In this document: piece by piece, positions 6,717 through 21,382 of the stretch | Position numbering within the stretch: the first letter of the stretch is position 1 | How the letters are laid out: every line of letters begins with the position of its first letter | Virus record (IMG/VR): IMGVR_UViG_3300025840_000309 | Span: 1 to 21,382 of that record | Strand: one strand, 5' to 3' | Length of the DNA stretch: 21,382 nucleotides | DNA from: a virus | Program-made: the position numbers and the translations under genes | Notes under the pieces: model-generated | The model's input: the letters and a program-made list of their open reading frames with translations, nothing else | What the model was told of the DNA's origin: nothing | Databases searched by the model: none

Positions 6717-7055
6717 ATGATAAACTTAAATACAATATTTCCAGCATCGCATTTATATAATCAAGAAAAATATAAATACGCTACAGAGAAAGATTTTTAT
6801 ACTGATATTGCTAAAAATATAAGCGAAGATTATGAGTTAATGATTTCGAAATTAATATTAAAGAATATATTATTAGAAGAATATGAAGAAGATATATTTA
6901 AATCAGAATTGCCTTTATCAAAGAAATTAAAATTAACTAAAATAACGAAAATGGATGTTGAGCAAATTAATAGTATTTTAGAAGATGAATTTGAATTATT
7001 TGTTTCTAACGAAAAAGCAGATATGCAAGAAATATATTTCAATTCATACTGTTAA
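6717..7055 (+). CDS. Unknown early protein
   Basis: I do not recognise this 112-residue acidic protein. It is predicted helical: a short N-terminal NLNTIFPASHLY segment, then Lys/Glu/Leu-rich stretches such as ELMISKLILKNILLEEYEED and a C-terminal EQINSILEDEFELFVS. There is no signal peptide or membrane segment, and one Cys is the last residue. The ATG is set by GGGAG within the leader AAAACAAGGGAG shared with several other genes here. It is the first gene of the rightward early unit next to the operator region, so a takeover or regulatory role is possible but not shown. Confidence 0.75.
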   Translation: MINLNTIFPASHLYNQEKYKYATEKDFYTDIAKNISEDYELMISKLILKNILLEEYEEDIFKSELPLSKKLKLTKITKMDVEQINSILEDEFELFVSNEKADMQEIYFNSYC

Positions 7056-9334: not shown

Positions 9335-10150
9335 TTACCCTCTTTTCTGTAATTCATTAACAAACTCATATATCTCATTCACAGATTCTGTTTCGTATTG
9401 TTCGTTATTTTTTTTATTAACGATTTTATTGTAATTATTCTCACTGTACCTTAATAGCCAATTCCTAGAGGCCGCTACCCAGCTCTTCATTGGCTTTCCT
9501 GCAACTTTCCACCCGTTAGATTCATAATAGTTGAAAAATTGCTCTGACTGCAAAAATAAAGCCCTCTCATTAACATTTAGACTCTTAGAAAATGCATATT
9601 TAGATATTTCTTTAAAAATATCATTAATTTCAGGCTTAACAAACTTTTTCTTTTTATCGATACTTTCAAAAATATTAAATTGCTCATTTTTATCACTTTC
9701 TTTTTTAGATATTAATTTATTAATATCTTTTTTCTTTATATTATTATCATTCTTATCATTATTGTTTGTGCGCGCTATCGTTTCACTATCGTTTCGCCAT
9801 CGTTTCGCTATCGTTTCGCTATCGTTTCTTGATTCTTGATATTTATCATAATTTACGCACGAAATTAACGTTCCTTTTCCGATCGCTATCGTTTCGATCA
9901 TTGAATCATTTTGTAAAAATTTTATTGCACGTGTGATTGTCGATCTATGAATATTAATTTGCTCTGATAATTTACTAAGAGAAGTATAAAAAGACCCCCT
10001 TTTTATCAATGTTTTTTGATTATTGATAATGATACTCTTATCTTTATGATTACATCTAAGTAAAATCTGAATAAATACTAAAAAATATGATTGATTTGTC
10101 ATTAAATGATGATCTAATAATGATCGATGAAGTTTTATATAACCCTCCAT
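9335..10150 (-). CDS. Phage replication initiator (O-like), carries the origin
   Basis: The 271-residue protein has an N-terminal winged HTH-like domain (EGYIKLHRSLLDHHL through about residue 100), with recognition-helix-type SEQINIHRSTITRAIKFLQ at 62-80. A low-complexity linker follows (110-165), then a C-terminal block GWKVAGKPMKSWVAASRNWL at about 214-233 seen in many phage replication proteins. By analogy with lambda O it would bind iterons and recruit the helicase through the next gene's product. The linker is encoded by an 11-bp tandem repeat array at 9774-9828, so the origin probably lies inside the gene. The ATG has a GGGGG ribosome site, partly inside the end of the upstream HTH gene. 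Confidence 0.75.
   Translation of the reverse strand: MEGYIKLHRSLLDHHLMTNQSYFLVFIQILLRCNHKDKSIIINNQKTLIKRGSFYTSLSKLSEQINIHRSTITRAIKFLQNDSMIETIAIGKGTLISCVNYDKYQESRNDSETIAKRWRNDSETIARTNNNDKNDNNIKKKDINKLISKKESDKNEQFNIFESIDKKKKFVKPEINDIFKEISKYAFSKSLNVNERALFLQSEQFFNYYESNGWKVAGKPMKSWVAASRNWLLRYSENNYNKIVNKKNNEQYETESVNEIYEFVNELQKRG
9774..9895. repeat. Iteron array, probable replication origin
   Basis: Five tandem 11-bp copies of GCTATCGTTTC occupy 9774-9828, two with one substitution each (A at the first base of copy 2; C at the third base of copy 3). A sixth exact copy is at 9885-9895. Directly beside them, 9700-9770 is a run of almost pure A/T with short TTATCATT-type repeats, a natural unwinding region. 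Iterons plus an AT-rich element inside an initiator gene is the arrangement of lambda-like origins. Because 11 is not a multiple of 3, three copies encode an 11-residue period (SETIAKRWRND). Confidence 0.75.
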
Positions 10151-10407: not shown

Positions 10408-10436
10408 TTGACTTTTTTATTTATTACATATATTAT
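10408..10436 (+). promoter_or_regulatory. Promoter of the recombination operon
   Basis: TTGACT (10408-10413), a 17-base spacer and TATTAT (10431-10436) make a good sigma-70-type promoter. Transcription would start near 10443, about 25 bases before the ATG at 10468, with the leader AAAACAAGGGAG (10448-10459). The reading frame extending upstream to 10408 is therefore non-coding. Confidence 0.7.
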
Positions 10437-10467
10437 AAATTCATTAAAAAACAAGGGAGTAAATATA

Positions 10468-11070
10468 ATGAAAGAATTATTAAGAAAACTACAAAAGGTT
10501 CAATCAGAGTTAAAATCTAAAAAAAAGAGGTATAATTCATTTGGTGAATATAAATATAGATCATGTGAGGATATCCTAGAAGATGTCAAACCACTTCTTT
10601 TTGAAAATGGATTATTTATCTTAATTTCAGATGATATTGAATATTATCATGGTAGGCATTATGTTAAATCAACAATTAGTGTATATGATATTTCATCAAA
10701 TACAGGTACTTTTTTAGAGGTACATGCATATGCAAGGGAGGAAGAATCAAAAAAAAAGATGGACGCAAGTCAAATAACTGGTTCAACGTCATCATATGCA
10801 AGAAAATACGCATTAAACGGCCTTTTTGCTATCGATGATGCAAAAGACAGTGATGCGACAAATAAACATGAAAATTACAAAAAAAAAGAAAAACAACATG
10901 TAAATGAAGATAAAAAAAGAGAATATCTAGAAAAAATGCAAAAATCTAATTCTATAGAAGAGTTAAAGGAATTATGGAGTAACGATATTCCGCAAGAATA
11001 TCGAATAGAATTATCATATGAAAAAAATATATTAAAAGAAAAACTTGATAAAGAAGCGAAAAGCAAATAG
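10468..11070 (+). CDS. ERF-family single-strand annealing recombinase
   Basis: The 200-residue protein anneals complementary single strands during phage recombination. It shows the ERF family blocks: SFGEYKYRSCEDILEDVKPL at 24-43, the KSTISVYDIS strand region, and KMDASQITGSTSSYARKYAL at 97-116 followed by NGLFAIDDAKDSDA. A Lys-rich linker follows residue 130, then a helical C-terminal domain (KREYLEKMQKSNSIEELKELW). I start it at 10468 because of the strong GGGAG and the promoter just upstream. With the YqaJ exonuclease and SSB downstream it forms a complete recombination module. Its first 12 bases match the starts of both LRR genes. Confidence 0.92.
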   Translation: MKELLRKLQKVQSELKSKKKRYNSFGEYKYRSCEDILEDVKPLLFENGLFILISDDIEYYHGRHYVKSTISVYDISSNTGTFLEVHAYAREEESKKKMDASQITGSTSSYARKYALNGLFAIDDAKDSDATNKHENYKKKEKQHVNEDKKREYLEKMQKSNSIEELKELWSNDIPQEYRIELSYEKNILKEKLDKEAKSK

Positions 11071-11080
11071 GTGAAATTTT

Positions 11081-11980
11081 ATGAAAGAATTAAACAAGTA
11101 TAACTATATTATAGAAAAAGACACATTAACTATTTTTGATGAGGGGGAATTAAGATTAGATTCTATTTTAAATAAAAAAATAAAAAAATTAAACGCTCCT
11201 AATTCTGATGCGATTTATTGCCAAAATAACAATTTAACGGAATTAAACGCTCCTAATGCTAAAAGAATTTCTTGCTACAATAACAAATTAACAGAATTAA
11301 ACGCCCCTAATGCTAAAGGAATTTTTTGTTGGAATAACAATTTAACAGAATTAAATGCCCCGAACGCTAAAGGAATTGATTGTTCTTATAACAATTTAAC
11401 AGAATTAAATGCCCCTAATGCTAAAGTAATTTATTGTTCTTATAACAATTTAACAGAATTAAATGCCCCGAACGCTAAAGAAATTTATTGCTGGAATAAC
11501 AAATTAACAGAATTAAACGCTACTAAGGCTGAGATAATTGATTGCCGTCATAACAAATTAACAGAATTAAACGCTACTAAGGCTGAGATAATTGATTGCC
11601 GTCATAACAAATTAACAGAATTAAACGCCCCTAATGCTAAAGTAATTTATTGTTCTTATAACAATTTAACAGAATTAAACGCACCTAATGTTGAAAGAAT
11701 TTATTGCTGTAATAACAAATTAACAGAATTAAACGCCCCTAATGCCAAAAGAATTTATTGTTCTTATAATAAATTAACAGAATTAAACGCCCCTAATGCT
11801 AAAATAATTGATTGCCGTCATAACAAATTAACAGAATTAAACGCCCCTAATGCTGAAAGAATTTATTGTTACAATAACAATTTAACAGAATTAAACGTTC
11901 CGAATGCAGATTTAATTTATTGTTACAATAACAATTTAACAGAATTAAATGATACCAATACTAAGCTAGAATCTTGGTAA
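11081..11980 (+). CDS. Leucine-rich-repeat protein 1 (18-residue repeats)
   Basis: The 299-residue protein starts MKELNKYNYIIEKDTLTIFD. After a 34-residue cap it has 14 tandem repeats of exactly 18 residues and a short tail. The consensus is LTELNAPNAKxIxCxxNx. It fits the LRR core LxxLxLxxNxL as A-x-x-I-x-C-x-x-N-x-L, with Cys in the core position and the Asn ladder kept. Variable residues are at repeat positions 11, 13, 15 and 16, on the predicted concave face. No signal peptide or membrane segment is present, so the protein is probably cytoplasmic. It has an AGGTGA ribosome site 10 bases after the ERF gene. Function is unknown; LRR proteins usually bind other proteins. A paralogue lies at 15183. 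Confidence 0.88.
   Translation: MKELNKYNYIIEKDTLTIFDEGELRLDSILNKKIKKLNAPNSDAIYCQNNNLTELNAPNAKRISCYNNKLTELNAPNAKGIFCWNNNLTELNAPNAKGIDCSYNNLTELNAPNAKVIYCSYNNLTELNAPNAKEIYCWNNKLTELNATKAEIIDCRHNKLTELNATKAEIIDCRHNKLTELNAPNAKVIYCSYNNLTELNAPNVERIYCCNNKLTELNAPNAKRIYCSYNKLTELNAPNAKIIDCRHNKLTELNAPNAERIYCYNNNLTELNVPNADLIYCYNNNLTELNDTNTKLESW
11183..11980 (+). repeat. 54-bp tandem repeats encoding the LRR1 solenoid
   Basis: About 14 copies of a 54-bp unit lie head to tail and in frame, with the common core AACAAATTAACAGAATTAAA or close variants. Two neighbouring copies, 11519-11572 and 11573-11626, are identical at every base, showing very recent duplication. Synonymous differences between other units (for example GCTCCT, GCCCCT, GCCCCG for the Ala-Pro pair) show older ones have diverged. 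Confidence 0.9.
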
Positions 11981-11999
11981 CAATTTAACAATATAATGG

Positions 12000-12028
12000 T
12001 TGATAATAAATTATTATTATGTTAAATT
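12000..12028 (+). promoter_or_regulatory. Promoter copy 1 of the shared set (exonuclease gene)
   Basis: TTGATA (12000-12005), a 17-base spacer and TAAATT (12023-12028) preceded by TGT make an extended -10 promoter. ATATAT and the leader AAAACAAGGGAG (12040-12051) follow before the ATG at 12060. The same layout recurs at 14004 and 15124. It lets the exonuclease/SSB genes be expressed apart from the upstream LRR1 gene. Confidence 0.65.
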
Positions 12029-12059
12029 ATATATGAATTAAAACAAGGGAGTTATAAAA

Positions 12060-12689
12060 ATGATAGTACATAAAATAGAGCAAAAAAGTGAAGAATGGAA
12101 CGAGATTAGAAAAGGCAAGCTAACCGCCAGTAATTTTTCTAAAATATTAACAAAAACAGGCAAACTATCTTCACAATATATCGATGTTATCTATGAAAAT
12201 TTAGCAGAGTTGCATACATGCCAAAGTGAATACCAGCCTACAAATTTTTATATGGAAAGGGGGTTAGAATTAGAAGAATACGCTATTTTAAACTATGAAA
12301 GTATATCAGGCGAAATAGTTGATAAAATTGGGTTTATTGAGTCTGAATGTGGTTTACTTGGGGTTTCACCCGACGGGTTGGTCGGTAAGGATGGTATTAT
12401 TGAGGTTAAGTGTTTGATGCAAAAAAAACACATTGCTTTGTTACTTGGAGAATATAAAGAAATAGATACTTATATACCTCAGATGCAATTCCAGTTGTTT
12501 GTATCTAAAAGGAAATGGGTTGATTTTATTTCTTATAATCCCGATTTTATAGAGCCTGAAAAAAGAATATTTATAAAAAGGATATTTATTGATGAGGAAT
12601 ATCAGAAATTAATTTCAAAATCTATAGATCAATACAAAGAAAAATTTATTGAATTAAGTAATTTATTGGGTAAAAATAATATATTTTAA
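12060..12689 (+). CDS. YqaJ-type 5'-3' exonuclease (recombination)
   Basis: The 209-residue nuclease is the likely partner of the ERF annealing protein, resecting double-strand ends as lambda Exo does for Beta. Family blocks are SEEWNEIRKGKLTASNFSKI at 10-29, MERGLELEEYA at 65-75 (E72), GVSPDGLVGKDGIIEVKC at 101-118 with D105, E115 and K117 as the catalytic D-(E)xK set, and YIPQMQFQLFVSKRKWVDFI at 138-157. Length is normal for the family. GGGAG precedes the ATG. The SSB gene follows 16 bases later. Confidence 0.92.
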   Translation: MIVHKIEQKSEEWNEIRKGKLTASNFSKILTKTGKLSSQYIDVIYENLAELHTCQSEYQPTNFYMERGLELEEYAILNYESISGEIVDKIGFIESECGLLGVSPDGLVGKDGIIEVKCLMQKKHIALLLGEYKEIDTYIPQMQFQLFVSKRKWVDFISYNPDFIEPEKRIFIKRIFIDEEYQKLISKSIDQYKEKFIELSNLLGKNNIF

Positions 12690-12705
12690 AATAGGAGTAA
12701 TAAAA

Positions 12706-13035
12706 ATGAATCAAGTAATTTTAATAGGTAATCTTACTCGCGATGTTGAGTGCAATGCTGTGAGTACAGGCGATTTAGTAGCCAAATTTTCTATAGCTGT
12801 AAATAGGGGGAAAGATCATGTTGACTTTATAAACTGCGAGGCATGGGGTAAATTAGCAGATAATCTAAATCAGTACTGTAAAAAGGGGTCAAAAATAGCG
12901 GTTATTGGATCGATTAGAGTAGATAATTATGAAAAAGATGGAGAAAAAAGAACATATTATAAAGTTAATTGTTTCTCTATTGAATTTTTAAGTAAAAAAG
13001 AATTAACAGACAATAAGATAGAATCTGATTTCTAA
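12706..13035 (+). CDS. ssb: Single-stranded DNA-binding protein
   Basis: The 109-residue protein has the OB fold of bacterial SSB: MNQVILIGNLTRDVECNAVS at the N-terminus, KFSIAVNRGKDHVDFINCEA, WGKLADNLNQYCKKGSKIAV, then IGSIRVDNYEKDGEKRTYYK and VNCFSIEFL. It is short because the usual glycine-rich linker is nearly absent. It ends KIESDF, a reduced version of the acidic DDDIPF-type tail that docks partner proteins. It would protect and organise single strands during replication and annealing. AGGAG precedes the ATG. A strong RNA hairpin follows the stop. Confidence 0.95.
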   Translation: MNQVILIGNLTRDVECNAVSTGDLVAKFSIAVNRGKDHVDFINCEAWGKLADNLNQYCKKGSKIAVIGSIRVDNYEKDGEKRTYYKVNCFSIEFLSKKELTDNKIESDF

Positions 13036-13037
13036 TA

Positions 13038-13068
13038 TGTGGACGGACAAGGGGGTGAACCGTCCACA
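13038..13068 (+). promoter_or_regulatory. 9-bp hairpin with ribosome-site-like loop
   Basis: TGTGGACGG (13038-13046) pairs perfectly with CCGTCCACA (13060-13068). The 13-base loop contains AAGGGGGTGA, close to an ideal Shine-Dalgarno sequence, but no start codon follows at a useful distance. It lies 3 bases after the ssb stop. A-rich rather than U-rich sequence follows, so a classical terminator is unlikely. It could stabilise or process ssb mRNA, or be bound by a protein or by ribosomes. Confidence 0.7.
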
Positions 13069-13115
13069 AAAATAATTTAACATAATTATCGATAAAATAA
13101 AATAAGAGGGTAATA

Positions 13116-13424
13116 ATGGTAGTGAATAAGATAAATAAATCAATTTTATCAGAAGCTTTGAGAATAACAGATGAAAGAATATTGACTTATGGTGATCCAG
13201 TGGAAAATTTGGAAAATATAGCTAAATTATGGAATACATATATAAAATCAAAAAAAATAAATTATGAAAATGATTTATGTATTATTACTAGCAAAGATGT
13301 GGCTATGATGATGGTTTTATTGAAAGTAGCACGAGAATTAAACTCAACTAATAAAGATAATTTAATAGATATAGCTGGATACTGTCGTTTAGCGTCTGTA
13401 ATAGAGGGGTTTGAAAATATATAA
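13116..13424 (+). CDS. DUF6378-type phage protein
   Basis: The 102-residue protein carries the pattern I know from DUF6378: LSEALRITDERILTYGDPVE at 11-30, NLENIAKLWNTYIKSKK, TSKDVAMMMVLLKVARELNS at 58-77, and DNLIDIAGYCRLASVI near the end. The YGDP, DVAxMMxLLKxAR and DIAGY blocks are conserved. The family is widespread in phages and of unproven function, often among nucleotide-metabolism genes. The family name is from memory. AGAGGG precedes the ATG. Confidence 0.85.
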   Translation: MVVNKINKSILSEALRITDERILTYGDPVENLENIAKLWNTYIKSKKINYENDLCIITSKDVAMMMVLLKVARELNSTNKDNLIDIAGYCRLASVIEGFENI

Positions 13425-13597
13425 TGTTAAGTAATACACTCTTTAAATACGGTTATAATTATAGTAAAAAGAGCAAAAAAATTTCAGAGTTTCATAGCAA
13501 TGTTTTTTCAGATAAAAAATGTAGTATTTATTCAATTAAGAAAATAAACTTTATCAATTTTCTGAAATTAAAAATAAATATTTTTTTTAATAAATAA
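13424..13597 (+). CDS. Possible 57-residue basic protein
   Basis: An ORF starts on the last base of the previous stop codon (TAATG), a coupled arrangement typical of phage operons. It encodes a Lys/Ser/Phe/Ile-rich product starting MLSNTLFKYGYNYSKKSKK and ending INFLKLKINIFFNK. No family is recognised. Because the region is extremely A/T-rich, an open frame of this length could be chance. GAGGGG lies about 12 bases upstream. Without this ORF, 13425-13611 would be plain AT-rich spacer. Confidence 0.4.
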   Translation: MLSNTLFKYGYNYSKKSKKISEFHSNVFSDKKCSIYSIKKINFINFLKLKINIFFNK

Positions 13598-13611
13598 GTT
13601 ATATTTTTCTT

Positions 13612-14007
13612 ATGAAACCGTCGAACTTTATAACTATTGATGAATTTAAAAAAATGTCCAAACAATATGATTTATCTAACCTTTTTTACGCTGAAATTAA
13701 TCGTCATAAAAAAAATCTTTTATTTGGAATTGAGCGTGAATTTAGATTCCATAAAAAAAGAATGTGGCGCTTTGATTTAGCTTGGCCTGATTACAATGTG
13801 GCTGTTGAAATTGACGGTGGCCAATTTAAAAAATTTGGTGGACGGCATGCAAGAGACTCGGATAGAGAAAAGATGAATAATGCTGTGATTTTAGGTTGGG
13901 CAGTTCTAAGATTCTCTGGGGAGATGATAAAAAAAGACCCTGTTTTGTGCATAGATCAACTCAATACTTTAATTGAAAACAAAAAGTTAATGTACAAAAG
14001 TGATTGA
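13612..14007 (+). CDS. PD-(D/E)XK endonuclease (Vsr/DUF559-like)
   Basis: The 131-residue protein has a Vsr/DUF559-type restriction-like nuclease core. E43 in the early helix region (EREFRFHKKR), MWRFDLAWPDYNVAVEIDGG at 51-70 with D55 and E66-I-D68, then GRHARDSDREKMNNAVILGW at 77-96 and VLRFSGEMI. The D-x(n)-ExD spacing, the H79/R81 after the glycines and the final LRF strand fit this fold. It probably cuts or nicks DNA during recombination, junction resolution or packaging; the target is not predictable. The start has no clear ribosome site, so coupling with the ORF ending at 13597 is possible. Promoter copy 2 begins inside its stop codon. Confidence 0.83.
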   Translation: MKPSNFITIDEFKKMSKQYDLSNLFYAEINRHKKNLLFGIEREFRFHKKRMWRFDLAWPDYNVAVEIDGGQFKKFGGRHARDSDREKMNNAVILGWAVLRFSGEMIKKDPVLCIDQLNTLIENKKLMYKSD

Positions 14008-14032
14008 CAACGGATTGTTATTTTGTTAAATT
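14004..14032 (+). promoter_or_regulatory. Promoter copy 2 of the shared set
   Basis: TTGACA (14004-14009, a perfect -35 overlapping the endonuclease stop), a 17-base spacer and TAAATT (14027-14032) preceded by TGT. ATATATAA and the leader AAAACAAGGGAG (14044-14055) follow. It drives the unit starting at 14066. It is the strongest of the three copies by consensus. Confidence 0.75.
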
Positions 14033-14065
14033 ATATATAAATTAAAACAAGGGAGTTTAAAAAAA

Positions 14066-14311
14066 ATGATACCAAGAATTTACAATAACGGAGAACCGTT
14101 TTTAACAGGCATAGATTACAGTAAGAATAATACAAGCCATAATGTTACGCCAAAAATTAAAAAAACTAATCACTATAGTATGAATAATTTTACGGCAAAC
14201 CCTATTATGCTAGCACGACAACACAAAGAAGCTGTAAAGACAATTATTTTATTTTTGTTGCTTGGAATTAGTTTTACATCGGGGTTTATAATCGGTAAAA
14301 AATGGAGTTAA
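14066..14311 (+). CDS. Small tail-anchored membrane protein
   Basis: The 81-residue protein has a polar, Asn/Thr/Lys-rich first half (residues 1-50) and one strong membrane helix near the C-terminus (TIILFLLLGISFTSGFIIG, 59-77) followed by KKWS. The basic end suggests an N-terminus on the far side of the membrane or a tail-anchored topology. No family is recognised. A perfect promoter and a GGGAG ribosome site precede it, so it should be well expressed early. Its position next to regulators and LRR2 makes it an accessory candidate for membrane takeover or superinfection exclusion, which is speculative. Confidence 0.7.
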   Translation: MIPRIYNNGEPFLTGIDYSKNNTSHNVTPKIKKTNHYSMNNFTANPIMLARQHKEAVKTIILFLLLGISFTSGFIIGKKWS

Positions 14312-14316
14312 CGCAT

Positions 14317-14697
14317 ATGTGTAATACTAAATTTATAAAAAGAAAAGAATTAGCAAAACTATTAAATATAAACGCAATGACATTATGGAAATTAATCAAA
14401 CGGGATAATGATTTCCCCGTAAATTATATAGGAAACAAAATACTATTTGATAAAAATCAAGTTTTAAATTATTTATCCAATAGATATGTTATTGAAGATT
14501 TTACAAACATAATAAGTTTAATAGACATAAAAGAATCGGCAAAAATATTAAGGGTCAGTGATACAGTAATGAGGCGGTTAGCAAAAGACGACATAGACCT
14601 GCAATATTTTAGAGTTGGTAGATTGTATAGGTTTTCTAAAGAAAACTTAATTAAATACGTTAATAATAAAATATACAGGAGTAGTAAAAATGGATAG
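14317..14697 (+). CDS. Double excisionase-like HTH protein
   Basis: The 126-residue protein has two compact HTH_17-like modules in a row. Module 1 (about 5-52) runs FIKRKELAKLLNINAMTLWK, then a VNYIGNKILFDKNQVLNYL wing. Module 2 (about 68-120) runs IDIKESAKILRVSDTVMRRL, then a FRVGRLYRFSKENLIKYV wing. I place the start at the second ATG (14317) because GGAG lies nine bases upstream. The earlier in-frame ATG at 14302 adds five residues without a ribosome site. Two linked HTH units could read two neighbouring half-sites, for instance the 17-bp palindrome at 15097-15113. Regulation is inferred from the fold only. Confidence 0.75.
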   Translation: MCNTKFIKRKELAKLLNINAMTLWKLIKRDNDFPVNYIGNKILFDKNQVLNYLSNRYVIEDFTNIISLIDIKESAKILRVSDTVMRRLAKDDIDLQYFRVGRLYRFSKENLIKYVNNKIYRSSKNG

Positions 14698-15091
14698 TTT
14701 AGATAAAATTTTTGAAGGACAAAAAGAATTAAATAAAAAATTAGTGCCTTGGATTGAAGAAGATTTAAAAAAAATAGAGGGGAAAATTGATTGGATATTT
14801 AAGTTTAAACTTGCAATGGATCAAGAAATAGCGGAGATGTCAGATTGTTTACCTTGGAAGTGGTGGTCGAAAAACAAGCCAATCGATTACCAAAATTTAA
14901 AAGTTGAATTAGTTGATATTTTGTTTTTTTGGACATCTATCTGTTTATCGGCTGGATTTTCAGCAAAAGAAATGAGAGAAGCTTACTTTAAAAAGTTAAT
15001 ATTAAATCATAAAAGAGCTGATAACGGATACAAAGAAGGTACTTATAATAAATATGATAAAAACGGTTTAGAAGATAATCGTAGCATTTAA
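14690..15091 (+). CDS. Dimeric dUTPase-like all-alpha NTP pyrophosphohydrolase
   Basis: The 133-residue protein matches the dUTPase_2/MazG-like all-alpha fold, which hydrolyses dUTP (or a related dNTP) to the monophosphate and pyrophosphate with Mg2+. The metal-binding set is ExxE at 46-49 and ExxD at 73-76 (KVELVDILFFW), with KWW at 57-59 and a C-terminal NHKRADNGYKEGTY block at 106-119 for the phosphate. The N-terminal 35 residues form a charged helix. It overlaps the HTH gene by 8 bases and has an AGGAG ribosome site. It would keep uracil out of phage DNA. Confidence 0.83.
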   Translation: MDSLDKIFEGQKELNKKLVPWIEEDLKKIEGKIDWIFKFKLAMDQEIAEMSDCLPWKWWSKNKPIDYQNLKVELVDILFFWTSICLSAGFSAKEMREAYFKKLILNHKRADNGYKEGTYNKYDKNGLEDNRSI

Positions 15092-15096
15092 ATCTA

Positions 15097-15113
15097 ATAT
15101 CAATAATTGATAT
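15097..15113. promoter_or_regulatory. 17-bp perfect palindrome upstream of the LRR2 promoter
   Basis: ATATCAATAATTGATAT is a perfect palindrome around a central A. It ends 10 bases before the -35 hexamer (15124) of the LRR2 promoter. Position and symmetry fit an activator site or an operator. The neighbouring double-HTH protein is a candidate binder. AT-rich palindromes are more frequent by chance in this composition. Confidence 0.5.
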
Positions 15114-15123
15114 GTTTAAGTGG

Positions 15124-15152
15124 TTTACAATGAATTGATTTTATGTTAAATT
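15124..15152 (+). promoter_or_regulatory. Promoter copy 3 of the shared set (LRR2 gene)
   Basis: TTTACA (15124-15129), a 17-base spacer and TAAATT (15147-15152) preceded by TGT. ATATATAA and a leader AAAACAAGGAGG follow before the ATG at 15183. The layout and much of the sequence equal copies 1 and 2. Confidence 0.7.
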
Positions 15153-15182
15153 ATATATAATAAAAACAAGGAGGAAAATAAA

Positions 15183-15971
15183 ATGAAAGAATTAAGTCAA
15201 CATAACTATATTATAGAAAAAGATACATTAACTATTTTTGATGATGGGGCATTAATATTAGATTCTATTTTAAATAAAAAAATAAAAAAATTAAACGCTC
15301 CTAAAGCTAAAGAAATTTATTGTAGTGACAACAACTTAACAGAATTAAACGCTCCTAATGCTAAAATAATTGATTGTTACAATAACAAATTAACAGAATT
15401 AAATGCACAGAACGCTAAAGAAATTTATTGTAGTTACAACAACTTAACAGAATTAAACGCTCATAAAGCTGAGATAATTTATTGTTACAATAACAAATTA
15501 ACAGAATTAAATGCACAGAACGCTAAAGAAATTATTTGTAGTTACAACAACTTAACAGAATTAAACGCTCATAAAGCTGAGATAATTTATTGTTACAATA
15601 ACAAATTAACAGAATTAAATGCTCCTAAAGCTGAAAGAATTATTTGCTATAGTAACAATTTAACAGAATTAAATGCTCCTAAAGCTGAAAGAATTATTTG
15701 CTATAGTAACAATTTAACAGAATTAAATGCTCCTAAAGCTGAAAGAATTAATTGTGAAAATAACAAATTAACAGAATTAAACGCTCCTAATGCTGAAAGA
15801 ATTTATTTTTCTTATAACAACTTAACAGAATTAAACGCTCCTAAAGCTGAGATAATTTACTGCGCAAATAACAAATTAACAAAGTTAAATGCCCCGAATG
15901 CTAAAGAAATTTATTGTTTAGGTAATAAACTAGAAGAATTAAATGCACCAAACGCTGAAATAATAAAATAG
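15183..15971 (+). CDS. Leucine-rich-repeat protein 2 (paralogue of LRR1)
   Basis: The 262-residue protein has the same 34-residue cap as LRR1 with few changes (NYIIEKDTLTIFDDG, then LDSILNKKIKKLNAP). It then has 12 repeats of 18 residues and a short end. Repeat consensus and Cys/Asn ladders are as in LRR1; one repeat has Phe for the core Cys (RIYFSYNN). Repeat-face residues differ from those of LRR1, so binding partners may differ. It is predicted cytoplasmic, with no signal or membrane segment. It has its own promoter and a GGAGG ribosome site, suggesting strong early expression. Partner and role are unknown; interaction with a host protein or defence factor is plausible. Confidence 0.88.
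   Translation: MKELSQHNYIIEKDTLTIFDDGALILDSILNKKIKKLNAPKAKEIYCSDNNLTELNAPNAKIIDCYNNKLTELNAQNAKEIYCSYNNLTELNAHKAEIIYCYNNKLTELNAQNAKEIICSYNNLTELNAHKAEIIYCYNNKLTELNAPKAERIICYSNNLTELNAPKAERIICYSNNLTELNAPKAERINCENNKLTELNAPNAERIYFSYNNLTELNAPKAEIIYCANNKLTKLNAPNAKEIYCLGNKLEELNAPNAEIIK
15285..15968 (+). repeat. 54-bp tandem repeats encoding the LRR2 solenoid
   Basis: About 12 units of 54 bp lie in frame. A two-unit block of 108 bp starting at 15375 is repeated at 15483 with only one codon changed (TAT to ATT). Units ending in RIICYSNN are also duplicated next to each other. The pattern indicates repeated unequal recombination after LRR1 and LRR2 separated. Confidence 0.9.
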
Positions 15972-16027
15972 TTTAAAAATAAAAAATAAAGGGTAAATAT
16001 AAAATAACAATAAAACAAGGGGTAAAA

Positions 16028-18460: not shown

Positions 18461-18870
18461 TACTGAATGCCTTTCTTAGATAAAAAATTATTAAATTTAT
18501 TATTTATATTATTAAACTTTATTTTATCTGAATCAAATTTTTCATTATCATTTAATATATTATTTAATTCATTAATAATAATATTTATATCATTATAATT
18601 ATAGTTTGATATCTCATTTTTTAGTATAGACAATATTTGTTGTTTAGCATTATCACTAATAGACTTATGATCTCTAATAAAAGCCGATATTCCATTATTA
18701 TTTATTTTTTTGTCTATATCTTTTAAAAACTTCATCTCTTTATGGATGTTATCCATTAATTGCCCTTTTTTAAGCTTCCACAACAAGAAGCTTTCATCAA
18801 ATTCAACGGATACTTCAGGAATTGTTGGTAATTCTGTATCTAAATTATTATTGTCTATAATGTATTTCAT
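18460..18870 (-). CDS. Unknown protein between tail tip and fibre
   Basis: The 136-residue protein begins MKYIIDNNNLDTELPTIPEV, then VEFDESFLLWKLKKGQLMDN and a helical, Asn/Lys/Ile-rich remainder ending NFLSKKGIQ. No membrane segment is present. It lies between tail-tip protein J and the fibre, where phages often place a fibre-assembly chaperone or fibre-attachment protein; that is the best positional guess. AAAGGG precedes the ATG. Asn-rich stretches mirror the local base composition. Confidence 0.55.
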   Translation of the reverse strand: MKYIIDNNNLDTELPTIPEVSVEFDESFLLWKLKKGQLMDNIHKEMKFLKDIDKKINNNGISAFIRDHKSISDNAKQQILSILKNEISNYNYNDINIIINELNNILNDNEKFDSDKIKFNNINNKFNNFLSKKGIQ

Positions 18871-18884
18871 AAATAACCCTTTCT

Positions 18885-21382
18885 TTAATAGCCTTTAGCA
18901 AACCAACTGACATTTTTAGCAGAATAACCAGCCCCACGTTCTACACCAATATCAAAGCTTGTTTTAGTTATGTTTTCAATCACGAGATAATCACTAGCAG
19001 TAGTTCCATCTAATATGGTACCACCAACTGAGGGTATCGCCTGGAATGTTTTATTAAAATTAACAGTTGTCAAACCAGAACCAGAAGTTGTCAAATCGCC
19101 AGTATCTACGACATCCGGCATATCGACAGTTACACTTAAATTGCTGATCAAAATATTAAAATTGCTCTTTTCTGATTCGCAAACTATTTTAAATTTAAAT
19201 GCTCTGGCATTATAATCACCAGTAAAGAATTTCCTATAACTAGACCAAGTTGGACTACCGCTTGGGTCATCATCTGTTGTTGATATATATGGTGTTACTT
19301 TTATGGGGTCATTATCATCACCATCAAATTTACCACTAGCATCATCAAACAAACCTTGATAATCGTCAAAGTAATTACCCGGTTCATCAATAGTAAATTT
19401 TATTGATAAATAAATTCTTGATGTAGACATTACACCCGTATCAATATAATCACTAAATTCATATTCACCGCTAGTTACAAAACCTGACCCACCACCGCCA
19501 TCAAAACTGCCAACTGCGTCATCAAAATTACCAGATAAGCTATCAAATAAAGACACACTATCAAAAGATAAATTAGAGCTGCTTACGTTCATATCTGTTT
19601 TTGTTCCTGTAAAAGTTGGGTTTTCTGTTAAAGTTTCAACGACATTCATTTTAATAAGAGTAGGGCTATTTGTTACAATAGTTGTTGCACTATCAGATAC
19701 ATTCCCCTGGCTATCTCTAGCCTTTATTAAATATGTTCCGCTCAACAAAGGTGCTATTGCATGAGTATCTTTCCCACTAATTTCAGGTATCAATAAATTT
19801 GAGTTAGACCATGTCGCCCCAGTTGTCAAAGGAGAATGTTTTAATATGATAGAACCACCGAAACGAACATCAATATCACTAACTAAATCCCAACTTAAAT
19901 ACGCATTGTTATTTACTGCGTTTAATGAAAAATTAGAGATATTAGAAGGCACTGCATTTAATCCATAAATTTCTTGTGCTTTCTCAACAAAATTACTATA
20001 TGAATTTGTTTCTGATATCGCCTTAACTCGAAATAAATAAGTTTCCGCCTTTATATCATTAATTTCAAATGAGTTAGATTGTGTTCTACCTAATATTATG
20101 AATTCAGGTTCATTAATTTGCTTATACTCTAATTGATATGATCTTGTAAATGCGCTTGGTGATGGGGCAAAACTAATAATCGCCCTTGTCTTTACGCTCG
20201 CCCCATTATTTGTAACATAATTCTCCTCTGTTATCTGTAAGTTTGAAGGTGGCCAAACTTTTTGCTTATCAGGTAATTGTAAGTTTGATCCGATGTCAGG
20301 GATTGAGTAATCATCTGAATTAAAATCATATAATGTACTTGGCTCATATTTTAATGTTATATTAAATAGTCCACTTTCAATTCTTTCTACATTAATAACT
20401 CTGTAAGGCCTACTTGAATAACTAAATCTTGGTAAATCAACATAAACCATATCATTTGGGGTTATCTCTATTGCCATCATTTTGCAAGTGATATTAATAA
20501 CCTCATTTGATCTATTTAAGTTTAAAAATATAGCAGCGAGACGTTGAGCCCTTTCTATATTTGTCTGTGATTGCAAATCAATTTCTTTTACTATCTCAAA
20601 ATTATTATCATTACTTTTATAAGTCTCATTTACAAAAGTAGGTATATTTGTCGGCGAGTAATCATTCTCAGCATTTAAATATATGCCTGTAATACTATTA
20701 AATTTCTCATCTATATTTTGGCTAGTATTTAAATTAACAGAATCAACAACCCAGCTCTCATCTATTGTTATAGTCGGTGTGCTGTAAGCCCCTGCCATTA
20801 TTCTATATTTACCATCAACATAAATTAACGAACCCAGCATACTAAATAGTATTTTATTAATATTATCAATAATTGGGTCTTCTGTTGATAATAATAAATC
20901 ACACGTATATCTTTTTTGTGTGCCGTCTGTTACATTTACTAACTCATCACATATATTAGCCGATGCAATAACATAATCATCATCAATATCTGACTCTGAT
21001 ATATGATTTCCTGCACCATATCCAGATATTAAATAATCACGTAAAATTAAAGCTGGATTTCTAGTATAAACAGTAGTAGAAGTTCTTGGATCGTAGCATT
21101 TTTTACCCTCAACAACACAATTTATATTCGGTATATTCGAAAAACTTTCTGGGTGATATCTTAATCTCACATATATAAAAGATATGCCATTCATAAAACT
21201 ATCTATATTACCGAATTCGCTATCAGCTATAACTCTAGTTCGAACAGGTAATGGGGTATTATCCGTTGCTTCATATCTGTAATATTCTTCAAATCCTGCT
21301 TTAGCTAATAAATTAAGCTCAACTTGATCTTCTGAATTTAATGTATTAAATTGTGGGTTTAACCCTTTTTTTATTAAGAAAA
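18885..21382 (-). CDS. Tail-tip attachment protein J-like, 5' end cut by the window
   Basis: The frame stays open to the right edge, so 831 residues are visible and the start is missing. An internal Met at 21194 is not the start, since FLIKKGLNPQ and following residues read through it. The lambda J-type block RNPALILRDYLISGYGAGNH followed by ISESDIDDDYVIASANICDE is clear. Then come a hub-like beta domain, fibronectin-III-like segments (PPSNLQITEEN onward) and a C-terminal beta domain ending SAKNVSWFAKGY. Two related Asp/Gly motifs occur (DDAVGSFDGG and DDASGKFDGD). This protein caps the tail tube and contacts the receptor, so the phage is probably a siphovirus. Confidence 0.88.
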   Translation of the reverse strand, partial: FLIKKGLNPQFNTLNSEDQVELNLLAKAGFEEYYRYEATDNTPLPVRTRVIADSEFGNIDSFMNGISFIYVRLRYHPESFSNIPNINCVVEGKKCYDPRTSTTVYTRNPALILRDYLISGYGAGNHISESDIDDDYVIASANICDELVNVTDGTQKRYTCDLLLSTEDPIIDNINKILFSMLGSLIYVDGKYRIMAGAYSTPTITIDESWVVDSVNLNTSQNIDEKFNSITGIYLNAENDYSPTNIPTFVNETYKSNDNNFEIVKEIDLQSQTNIERAQRLAAIFLNLNRSNEVINITCKMMAIEITPNDMVYVDLPRFSYSSRPYRVINVERIESGLFNITLKYEPSTLYDFNSDDYSIPDIGSNLQLPDKQKVWPPSNLQITEENYVTNNGASVKTRAIISFAPSPSAFTRSYQLEYKQINEPEFIILGRTQSNSFEINDIKAETYLFRVKAISETNSYSNFVEKAQEIYGLNAVPSNISNFSLNAVNNNAYLSWDLVSDIDVRFGGSIILKHSPLTTGATWSNSNLLIPEISGKDTHAIAPLLSGTYLIKARDSQGNVSDSATTIVTNSPTLIKMNVVETLTENPTFTGTKTDMNVSSSNLSFDSVSLFDSLSGNFDDAVGSFDGGGGSGFVTSGEYEFSDYIDTGVMSTSRIYLSIKFTIDEPGNYFDDYQGLFDDASGKFDGDDNDPIKVTPYISTTDDDPSGSPTWSSYRKFFTGDYNARAFKFKIVCESEKSNFNILISNLSVTVDMPDVVDTGDLTTSGSGLTTVNFNKTFQAIPSVGGTILDGTTASDYLVIENITKTSFDIGVERGAGYSAKNVSWFAKGY

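What the first reader, a model, noticed from the sequence alone, without database searches (positions are those of the whole stretch)
11081..15971. A pair of phage proteins built from unusually short 18-residue leucine-rich repeats
Two paralogues (14 and 12 repeats) share a 34-residue cap and the repeat LTELNAPNAKxIxCxxNx. Aligned to the LRR core LxxLxLxxNxL they read A-x-x-I-x-C-x-x-N-x-L. Known LRRs are mostly 20-30 residues, so an 18-residue unit would be at or below the normal limit. Neither protein has a signal peptide, so they act inside the cell. I know of no described function for such proteins in phages of this type. They may be inhibitors or decoys for a host factor or defence protein.
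Basis: partly seen in the sequence, partly recalled or inferred. Interest (0 to 1): 0.8.

Follow-up and report, generated by a model that had tools for sequence, protein, structure and literature searches.

The report
Shortened leucine-rich repeat phage proteins
A small uncultured phage carries two proteins made of leucine-rich repeats only 18 residues long, an unusually short form, whose likely binding face is diversified and whose genes sit where close relatives keep defence-like or DNA-methylation genes, so they are probably exchangeable weapons of phage-host conflict.

Summary
ORFs 11081-11980 (299 aa) and 15183-15971 (262 aa) contain 14 and 12 units, every step exactly 18 residues, behind a shared cap. 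They are LRR proteins. A sequence profile gives YopM at E 7e-10. AlphaFold2 gives a solenoid (pLDDT 92.6; Z 22 to YopM and InlJ). All 23 units tested fit the LRR core in one register only, with Ala and Cys at two leucine positions. This is the known Cys-type IRREKO plan (21 residues) shortened by three. A 19-residue viral case is in print. A matched scan finds 18-residue units in 22 viral stretches (18 from this phage group, 4 from about three other viruses), against at least 120 stretches for 21 residues. Amino-acid changes between units concentrate on four exposed strand positions. New here: both genes occupy exchangeable slots of the early operon. In relatives the first slot holds an ABC-3C cassette and the second a DNA methyltransferase. 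One LRR1 tract is identical in a relative whose downstream flank is about 85% identical. I read them as cytoplasmic binding scaffolds carried as conflict cargo, most likely counter-defence. The target is unknown and nothing functional was shown. New variant of a known kind.

The parts
11081..11980 (+). LRR1, 299 aa: cap plus 14 complete 18-residue LRRs and a partial one
   Evidence: periodicity; AlphaFold2 pLDDT 92.6, pTM 0.87; Z 22.5 to YopM; YopM E 7e-10 by sequence profile
15183..15971 (+). LRR2, 262 aa: same cap plus 12 complete 18-residue LRRs and a partial one
11081..11179 (+). N-terminal cap of LRR1 (residues 1-33), predicted short beta strands
15183..15281 (+). N-terminal cap of LRR2 (residues 1-33)
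   Evidence: 102 bp at this start are 99% identical in L035 while its neighbours are 73-76%
10468..11070 (+). Erf-like annealing protein, left border of slot 1
   Evidence: phrog_155 E 2e-41 for the longer frame 10408-11070
12060..12689 (+). exonuclease, right border of slot 1
   Evidence: phrog_149 E 6.5e-33
14690..15091 (+). NTP pyrophosphohydrolase, left border of slot 2
   Evidence: phrog_173 E 5e-16
15390..15497 (+). units 3-4 of LRR2, near-identical to units 5-6; two units (108 bp) are absent in the otherwise identical contig L034, exact boundary ambiguous

Best explanation
Two paralogous cytoplasmic LRR solenoids with a shortened 18-residue Cys-type unit. Steps supported by computation: each unit is a predicted two-strand coil; the core positions are fixed; the exposed positions of the concave strand are diversified between units; units are duplicated and apparently lost; both genes sit in exchangeable slots of the early recombination operon. 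Steps inferred: the concave face binds a protein partner by steric masking, with no enzyme domain; the partner is a conflict protein, most likely a host defence or restriction factor met early in infection, so the pair acts as counter-defence inhibitors with different specificities. Rough odds of the parts: LRR fold 0.95; exchangeable accessory cargo 0.8; binder of a conflict protein 0.55; counter-defence specifically 0.4.
For: Fold: AlphaFold2 pLDDT 92.6, pTM 0.87; Foldseek and VIA put YopM 4ow2 (Z 22.5, rmsd 5.4, 287 aligned) and InlJ 3bz5 (Z 22.4, rmsd 6.0, 294 aligned) on top; the sequence profile alone finds YopM at E 7e-10. Diversified face: pN 0.437 against pS 0.337 at unit positions 11, 13, 15, 16 (core positions 3, 5, 7, 8), but pN 0.012 against pS 0.221 at six core positions, over 24 units; minimal codon steps 21 nonsynonymous and 4 synonymous there against 11 and 13 elsewhere, Fisher one-sided p 0.0056. 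Turnover: exact unit duplications in both genes; L034 is identical in 250 bases before and 4,746 bases after the stretch of difference, but lacks two units. Slots: in L083/L084 homology resumes at window 11993, and in L083 the gap between Erf and exonuclease holds MC6 (PF20293, 2e-11) and a DUF2326 ATPase (PF10088, 1e-36); in L085 homology stops at 15092 and resumes at 15981, with an N6/N4 DNA methylase (PF01555, 3.5e-33) between. Exchange: LRR1 in L027 is identical to the window, then identity falls to about 85% past 12300. Recurrence: another virus with 18-residue LRRs (L057) has its LRR gene upstream of Erf, exonuclease and SSB genes too.
Against: No partner, phenotype or expression data. 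No defence family matches either protein (PADLOC). Pairwise dN/dS between units is not a formal selection test, because units are not independent and gene conversion is likely; positions 7, 8, 10 and 18, outside the four, also vary (pN 0.17-0.25). The same codon test is not significant in two of the three other 18-residue families (p 0.54 and 0.50; L065 p 0.049). Slot evidence rests on few relatives: one phage with the ABC-3C cassette, one with the methyltransferase. One contig, L026, reads ATT in place of the LRR1 start codon, so that copy may be weakly or not expressed. AlphaFold2 is known to over-predict beta-solenoids for near-perfect repeats (PMC11795689). L027, L034 and L035 are metagenome contigs whose ends or gaps fall in or near repeats, so assembly error cannot be excluded. 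A phage LRR-like protein in print lies in the tail module, not an early operon (PMC10945359, passages).
Confidence: 0.5

Rival explanations
1. Superinfection exclusion: the LRR proteins bind proteins of competing phages and protect the infected cell, like the defence-like genes in the same slot of a relative.
For: Slot 1 of L083 holds ABC-3C genes (MC6 and DUF2326 ATPase), a predicted conflict system (recalled). LRRs are sensor modules in many immune proteins (general knowledge). The HTH protein 14302-14697 matches excisionase families among others (phrog_66 E 2e-11, phrog_2907 E 3e-5), so a temperate life, where exclusion pays most, is possible.
Against: No effector domain was found in either protein. 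No integrase family matched any of the 27 window ORFs and 10 L074 ORFs searched against PHROGs (not every small ORF was searched).
Confidence: 0.2
2. Host takeover: the pair binds and redirects host housekeeping proteins such as a polymerase or nuclease.
For: Early operon with recombination genes, ribosome-binding-like sequences by eye, no sign of secretion.
Against: LRR1 is absent from slot 1 of L083/L084 and LRR2 from slot 2 of L083/L084 and L085, which keep the neighbouring genes, so the function is dispensable. Diversified binding faces fit a moving target better than a conserved host enzyme.
Confidence: 0.2
3. Recombination helper: LRR1 works with Erf and the exonuclease, for example as a Gam-like inhibitor of host nucleases.
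For: LRR1 lies between the Erf and exonuclease genes; in L057 an 18-residue LRR gene lies about 2.9 kb upstream of Erf.
Against: L083 keeps Erf, exonuclease and SSB without LRR1. In the distant L086/L087 Erf and exonuclease abut with nothing between. LRR2 lies about 2.5 kb beyond the exonuclease, behind a different gene.
Confidence: 0.06
4. Not a functional solenoid: a selfish tandem repeat expansion, with AlphaFold2 imposing a solenoid on it.
For: 54-bp repeats duplicate and differ in number. AlphaFold2 over-predicts beta-solenoids for perfect repeats (PMC11795689). L026 lacks the LRR1 ATG.
Against: Constraint at core positions with synonymous drift (pN 0.012 against pS 0.221); no stop codon inside any copy read; about three other viruses with the same 18-residue plan but other residues; a sequence-only match to YopM.
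Confidence: 0.04

Closest known systems
IRREKO@LRR, Cys subtype LxxLxCxxNxLxxLDLxx(N/L/x)xx (PMC2946307)
   Same: Cys at core position 6, Asn at 9, Leu at 11 and 14, Asn or Asp at 15; a group of members lacks a signal peptide (passages and section 5 read)
   Different: 21 residues; here 18, with the variable segment cut from ten to seven residues, Ala at positions 1 and 16, Ile at 4, and Pro at 17
MSV251 of Melanoplus sanguinipes entomopoxvirus (Q9YVJ1)
   Same: Shortened Cys-type viral LRR, LkyLdCsNNxLxnLxiN(n/d)n; also a Foldseek match in BFVD at E 1.3e-4
   Different: 19 residues; an insect virus, not a phage
Shortened LRRs of dsDNA viruses (Matsushima et al. 2021, Arch Virol 166:43-64)
   Same: Same trend; from memory, units one to five residues shorter than known classes and frequent Cys. 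Only the title was seen.
   Different: From memory, the shortest reported units are 19 residues; unread, so an 18-residue case there cannot be excluded
YopM / IpaH / SspH effector LRRs
   Same: Best structural and profile matches; [quoted passage not shown] 20 residues from memory
   Different: LPxLP motif in the unit; injected into eukaryotic cells; some carry a ligase domain (recalled); here none of these was seen
Internalin J (3bz5)
   Same: Entry title names a cysteine ladder; second-best structure match
   Different: Secreted surface protein of Listeria, longer unit (recalled)
Vibrio phage VB_VaC_TDDLMA CDS0008
   Same: Phage gene with Cys-type LRRs, LTSLEGAPQSVQGNFYCSNNN, next to a DnaB-like helicase gene
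   Different: 21-residue unit, 39-41% identity over repeats, little variation between units by eye
LRR-like protein of a Vibrio mediterranei phage (PMC10945359)
   Same: Phage protein with the LRR core, highly diverse among its relatives (passages)
   Different: Lies in the tail module, weak LRR assignment (10% probability in the paper), proposed host or coral recognition
Lamprey variable lymphocyte receptors (analogy only)
   Same: LRR proteins diversified by rearranging LRR cassettes (abstract start seen in listing)
   Different: No homology claimed; immune receptors of animals

Membership tests
LRR superfamily | Core LxxLxLxxNxL with L = Leu, Ile, Val or Phe | tested here: not met
   0 of 23 units in full; 62% of core positions in the best register
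LRR superfamily | Same core with L widened to include Met, Ala and Cys | tested here: met
   23 of 23 units in register 9, none in the other 17 registers. The paper allows Ala and Met as L, and Cys at position 6, for IRREKO; I applied the wider set at all L positions.
LRR superfamily | Arc or solenoid with stacked parallel strands | tested here: met
   Prediction only:
LRR superfamily | Unit of 20-30 residues (most LRRs) | tested here: not met
   18 residues in 24 of 24 steps
IRREKO@LRR Cys subtype | Cys at core position 6 | tested here: met
   23 of 24 units Cys, 1 Phe
IRREKO@LRR Cys subtype | Leu at 11 and 14, Asp or Asn at 15 | tested here: met
   Leu 24 of 24 at both, Asn 24 of 24
IRREKO@LRR Cys subtype | Predominantly Leu at 1, 4 and 16 | tested here: inconclusive
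   Ala 23 of 24, Ile 24 of 24, Ala 23 of 24: allowed by the paper's definition of L but not predominant Leu
IRREKO@LRR Cys subtype | Unit of 21 residues | tested here: not met
   18; filed as a shortened IRREKO-like variant, not as a member
YopM / IpaH / SspH | LPxLP in the unit | tested here: not met
   Unit reads LTELNAPN
YopM / IpaH / SspH | C-terminal ligase domain (some members) | tested here: not met
   Only 14 and 13 residues follow the last complete unit; no Pfam domain but LRRNT reaches its cut-off
YopM / IpaH / SspH | Secretion signal for a type III system | not tested
   no predictor run
Internalins | Signal peptide and cell-wall anchor | tested here: not met
   No strongly hydrophobic N-terminus; only a partial unit follows the last complete one; no dedicated predictor run
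LRRNT (PF01462) | Cys-rich N-terminal cap domain | tested here: not met
   Whole-protein score passes the cut-off (69.1 and 45.4 bits against 25.8), but the best stretches are 12 and 14 residues of the repeat; no single stretch passes E 1 in LRR1 and one does in LRR2. I take it as a repeat-summing artefact.
Known anti-phage defence proteins | Match to a PADLOC model | tested here: not met
   0 families for both at E 0.01

The most novel reading that the evidence does not exclude
Phages of this group carry a recombining, repeat-shuffled LRR recognition module, working like a miniature variable LRR receptor without an effector: each copy masks a different host or rival protein, and new specificities arise by unit duplication, loss and change on the concave face. 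The 18-residue unit would be a minimal LRR class of its own, selected for gene economy and seen in this work only in viruses.
Probability: 0.3. Interest if true: 0.75.

Novelty: new variant of a known kind. Interest (0 to 1): 0.5.

Why it matters
An 18-residue LRR would set a lower bound for one of the commonest binding folds and gives a compact natural scaffold. If the concave face binds defence proteins, the exchangeable slots of this phage group are a place to look for new counter-defence genes, and the positions that matter are already visible in the sequence. LRRs are established sensors in immunity; a phage using bare LRR arrays against its host or rivals would be a counterpart. I saw no description of one in the listings of three searches, which show only part of what they matched (20 of 77 papers; 12 of 75; 8 of 1,244).

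Tried and rejected
Family libraries: Pfam, PHROGs, NCBIfam and PADLOC gave no function that I accept for the two proteins. Hits such as MutS2, VP16-like and GumK_N are below their cut-offs; a pseudomurein endopeptidase PHROG (E 4e-6, LRR2) has no cut-off and I take it as a composition match.

Close relatives: the scan with LRR1 returned 16 loci, 15 of the same phage and L027, a mosaic relative. The scan with LRR2 in genome contigs gave 15 pattern stretches and no relative. The repeat alignment A3 gave 19 of 42 viral stretches (one new, L044, in which no array was found) and 2 of 60 cellular stretches, a Clostridiales MAG and Treponema putidum, both with longer units.

Cellular 18-residue LRRs: the DNA pattern hit 0 of 398 and 0 of 392 genomes drawn from the phyla of those two. 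No positive control with the 21-residue pattern was run in these genomes, so the absence is weak evidence; other phyla were not searched.

Second pattern: 30 stretches, 8 of them not seen. An open frame with the motif was found in 3 of those 8, and only one, L073, is an LRR protein, with mixed 18- and 21-residue steps. I take the rest as chance.

Distant exonuclease relatives (12 loci, L086-L097): in L086 and L087 Erf and exonuclease abut, so slot 1 is empty; in the other ten no Erf was recognised. A scan with the pyrophosphohydrolase found only contigs of phages already known (12 loci).

Rejected: a tail or adhesin role (no signal peptide, not in the tail module); an effector delivered to eukaryotes (position in the recombination operon, no ligase domain); a recombination partner (operon kept without LRR1 in L083). 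The 'Listeria phage LM' hits in the phage collection were not aligned in detail; by annotation of similar plasmid hits they look like internalins.

The L064 model (mean pLDDT 65, no alignment) supports LRR only for its repeat part (VIA Z 13.4 to YopM, rmsd 3.7, 144 aligned), and Z near 13 can be common for repeats. Promoter- and terminator-like sites around the operon were not above shuffled sequence (33 against 43.3 and 1 against 1.6).
Full report
What the window is. The window is a 21,382-bp IMG/VR virus record, 29% G+C. It encodes an HK97-type major head protein, portal, large terminase, a lambda-J-like tail protein, an endolysin, a DnaD-like helicase loader, Erf, an exonuclease, SSB and an NTP pyrophosphohydrolase. 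A 29.5-kb contig of the same phage group, G001, has ends that map to overlapping window positions (from 18730 at its left end, to 19710 at its right end; the left piece is 96% identical to the window), so the genome is probably about 28.5 kb and circularly permuted (inference). No integrase family matched the 27 window ORFs and 10 L074 ORFs that I searched, but the HTH protein 14302-14697 matches excisionase as well as regulator families, so the life style is open. The host is unknown.

The observation. Two plus-strand genes, 11081-11980 and 15183-15971, encode 299 and 262 residues. Anchors (C/F)xxNxL fall every 18 residues without exception: 13 of 13 and 11 of 11 steps. The DNA repeats have period 54 with 14.4 and 12.8 copies. 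The two share a cap; their first 68 residues are 79% identical and the aligned proteins 74%.

It is an LRR. The unit LTELNAPNAKxIxCxxNx contains the core A-x-x-I-x-C-x-x-N-x-L. With the wide definition of L (L, I, V, F, M, A, C), all five core positions fit in 23 of 23 units in one register and in no unit in the other 17. With L, I, V, F only, 0 of 23 fit fully, so the classical core is met only with the Ala and Cys replacements that the IRREKO paper allows (PMC2946307; passages and section 5 read). A profile of the two proteins finds YopM in PDB sequences at E 7e-10, without any structure prediction; the single protein finds SspH1 at E 1e-4. AlphaFold2 on the two-sequence alignment gives mean pLDDT 92.6 and pTM 0.87, with a strand at ELN and another near IxC in each unit. 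Foldseek ranks YopM, InlJ and SspH2 first. VIA gives Z 22.5 (rmsd 5.4, 287 aligned) for YopM and 22.4 (rmsd 6.0, 294 aligned) for InlJ, whose entry title names a cysteine ladder. The large rmsd suggests that the coils match while overall curvature differs. Caution: AlphaFold2 makes confident but unrealistic beta-solenoids from perfect repeats (PMC11795689; outline with abstract and section 3.2.8 read).

How unusual is 18. PMC2946307 gives 20-30 residues for most LRRs, 21 for IRREKO and 19 for one entomopoxvirus protein. [quoted passage not shown] A 2021 paper on shrinking of LRR units in dsDNA viruses exists (title seen in the reference list of PMC10945359; not held); I recall, without having read it here, that its shortest units are 19 residues. 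Searches for 18-residue LRRs turned up no array of them (the last listed 10 of 28 papers, none opened but PMC2946307). I scanned the viral contig collection with the same anchors at two spacings. At 18 residues there are 22 stretches. By contig name, 18 are this phage group and 4 are other viruses: L057 and L062, both from dataset 3300012931 and probably one virus (LTSLSVPNATHVYCSNNQ), L064 (LTQLNLPKAERVYCYNNQ, followed by a weak DUF6745 match) and L065 (LTNLELPNATKVYCNNNQ). In the 80 loci returned there, 637 of 682 anchor spacings between 15 and 30 are 21, 6 are 19 and 1 is 18 (these loci were chosen by the 21-residue pattern, so this is a description and not an unbiased census). Thus the 18-residue unit is a rare, recurrent short form of the Cys-type LRR. 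It was not seen in 790 cellular genomes of two phyla (no positive control). Protein searches of the GenBank phage collection gave 9, 6 and 10 records, all under 60% identity.

Diversified face. Over 24 units, unit positions 11, 13, 15 and 16 (core 3, 5, 7, 8, the exposed strand positions) have pN 0.437 and pS 0.337. Six core positions have pN 0.012 and pS 0.221; all fourteen other positions together have pN 0.073 and pS 0.368, with positions 7, 8, 10 and 18 moderately variable (pN 0.17-0.25). Position 11 uses AGA, ATA, GAA, GGA, GTA and TTA: six codons, six residues, no synonymous change. Counting the fewest codon steps per position gives 21 nonsynonymous and 4 synonymous at these four positions against 11 and 13 at the other fourteen (one-sided Fisher p 0.0056). 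The four positions were chosen after I had seen the repeats, though they are also the ones the LRR core predicts. In the other families the same count gives 6/0 against 6/1 (p 0.54), 5/0 against 4/1 (p 0.50) and 6/0 against 3/4 (p 0.049); these have 11, 5 and 3 units, so only the window case is informative. Mean identity of units within LRR1 is 0.83, within LRR2 0.79 and between genes 0.80, with exact duplicates inside each gene: recent duplication occurs inside genes, wholesale homogenisation does not.

Copy-number change. Contig L034 is identical to the window over the first 250 bases compared and over 4,746 bases after the stretch of difference, but lacks 108 bp, two units of LRR2. The missing units are near-identical neighbours, so assembly collapse is possible. 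LRR1 has 299 residues in all full copies with an ATG start; three single-residue variants occur in four contigs, and one of these, L026, reads ATT for the start codon.

Exchangeable slots. I compared the operon with relatives. L083 and L084 (same sequence over their shared part by their ORF lists; exonuclease 69% identical to the window's) have four genes before the exonuclease, and L083 also shows Erf before them; homology to the window resumes at 11993. The third and fourth genes are ABC-3C middle component 6 (PF20293, E 2e-11) and a DUF2326 ATPase (PF10088, E 1e-36); the first two have no Pfam match. That ABC-3C is a predicted conflict system is recalled. In the same phage the second slot holds two small genes, one of them a homologue of window ORF 6717-7055. 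In L085 homology stops at window 15092 and resumes at 15981, around LRR2, and the gap holds a DNA methylase (PF01555, E 3.5e-33). L027, a close relative of L085 over their shared part by their ORF lists, has an LRR1 tract identical to the window, after which identity drops to about 0.8-0.9 in most blocks past 12300, 86% in the aligned stretch from 12688. Seven further contigs end near that point: their exonuclease match stops at residue 81 or 82, and for three of them the end was mapped to 12304-12306. That is what an assembly graph does where two genomes share one side and differ on the other. In L035 the LRR2 start is 99% identical over 102 bp at the contig end, while its neighbours are 73% and 76%. 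Together this suggests that the LRR genes move between diverged phages by recombination and share their slots with conflict genes. In the distant L086 and L087 Erf and exonuclease abut. In L057 the end of an 18-residue LRR gene is followed about 2.9 kb downstream by Erf (phrog_2324, E 2e-42), exonuclease (phrog_149, E 2e-29) and SSB (phrog_44, E 3e-41) genes, again the early module.

How it most likely works. Translated early (inferred from the operon; ribosome-binding-like sequences by eye), the proteins fold into bare LRR arcs with a small N-terminal cap and no other domain. The inner face binds a partner; different unit mixes give LRR1 and LRR2 different partners. Masking a host defence or restriction protein is the reading I put first, because the slots hold a methyltransferase and defence-like genes in relatives, the genes are early, and the face is diversified. 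Exclusion of rival phages and host takeover are the main rivals. Nothing here demonstrates binding.

Membership. It works like, and by predicted fold is, an LRR. It fails the length criteria of the classes that I could check, and the LPxLP, signal-peptide and ligase features of YopM/IpaH and internalins. I file it as a shortened IRREKO-like variant.

Score. A structural biologist would note the 18-residue unit and a phage biologist the slots. The kind is known and the function open, hence 0.5.

Noticed in passing
L083 947-3348 (and L084 66-2467): Four-gene cassette with ABC-3C MC6 and a DUF2326 ATPase before the exonuclease gene of a related phage: a phage-borne candidate defence system.
   Followed up: partly
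L085 526-795, L027 1464-1733: 89-residue ORF with DUF4116 repeats (PF13475, E 6e-17, two stretches, tested in L085) between exonuclease and SSB genes in relatives; not present there in the window.
   Followed up: partly
window 6717-7055; L083 7463-7801; L035 4304-4642: A small plus-strand ORF of the window lies next to slot 2 in relatives (75-76% nucleotide identity).
   Followed up: no
window 13612-14007: DUF559-family endonuclease-like protein (PF04480 E 2e-5); by ORF reading also in L083, L085 and L027, not seen in L035.
   Followed up: no
window 9773-9828: 11-bp tandem repeat CGCTATCGTTT, 5.1 copies, inside the DnaD-like helicase loader gene.
   Followed up: no
L064 8183-8962: 18-residue LRRs followed by a C-terminal part with a weak DUF6745 match (E 0.0013, below cut-off).
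   Followed up: partly
GenBank records OR846716, OR848127 and others named Listeria phage LM 4-11-1 / LM 4-14-1: Several unannotated records share one phage name and carry internalin-like LRR matches; they may be bacterial contigs.
   Followed up: no
G001 ends (L074 1-980 and window 18730-19710): Overlapping contig ends suggest a circularly permuted genome of about 28.5 kb, with a few percent divergence from the window's tail gene.
   Followed up: partly
window 14302-14697: HTH protein with excisionase and regulator PHROG matches (phrog_66 E 2e-11) and a weak PADLOC mad1 match (E 4e-5).
   Followed up: no
L026, start of LRR1: ATT replaces the ATG start codon of LRR1 in this one contig.
   Followed up: partly
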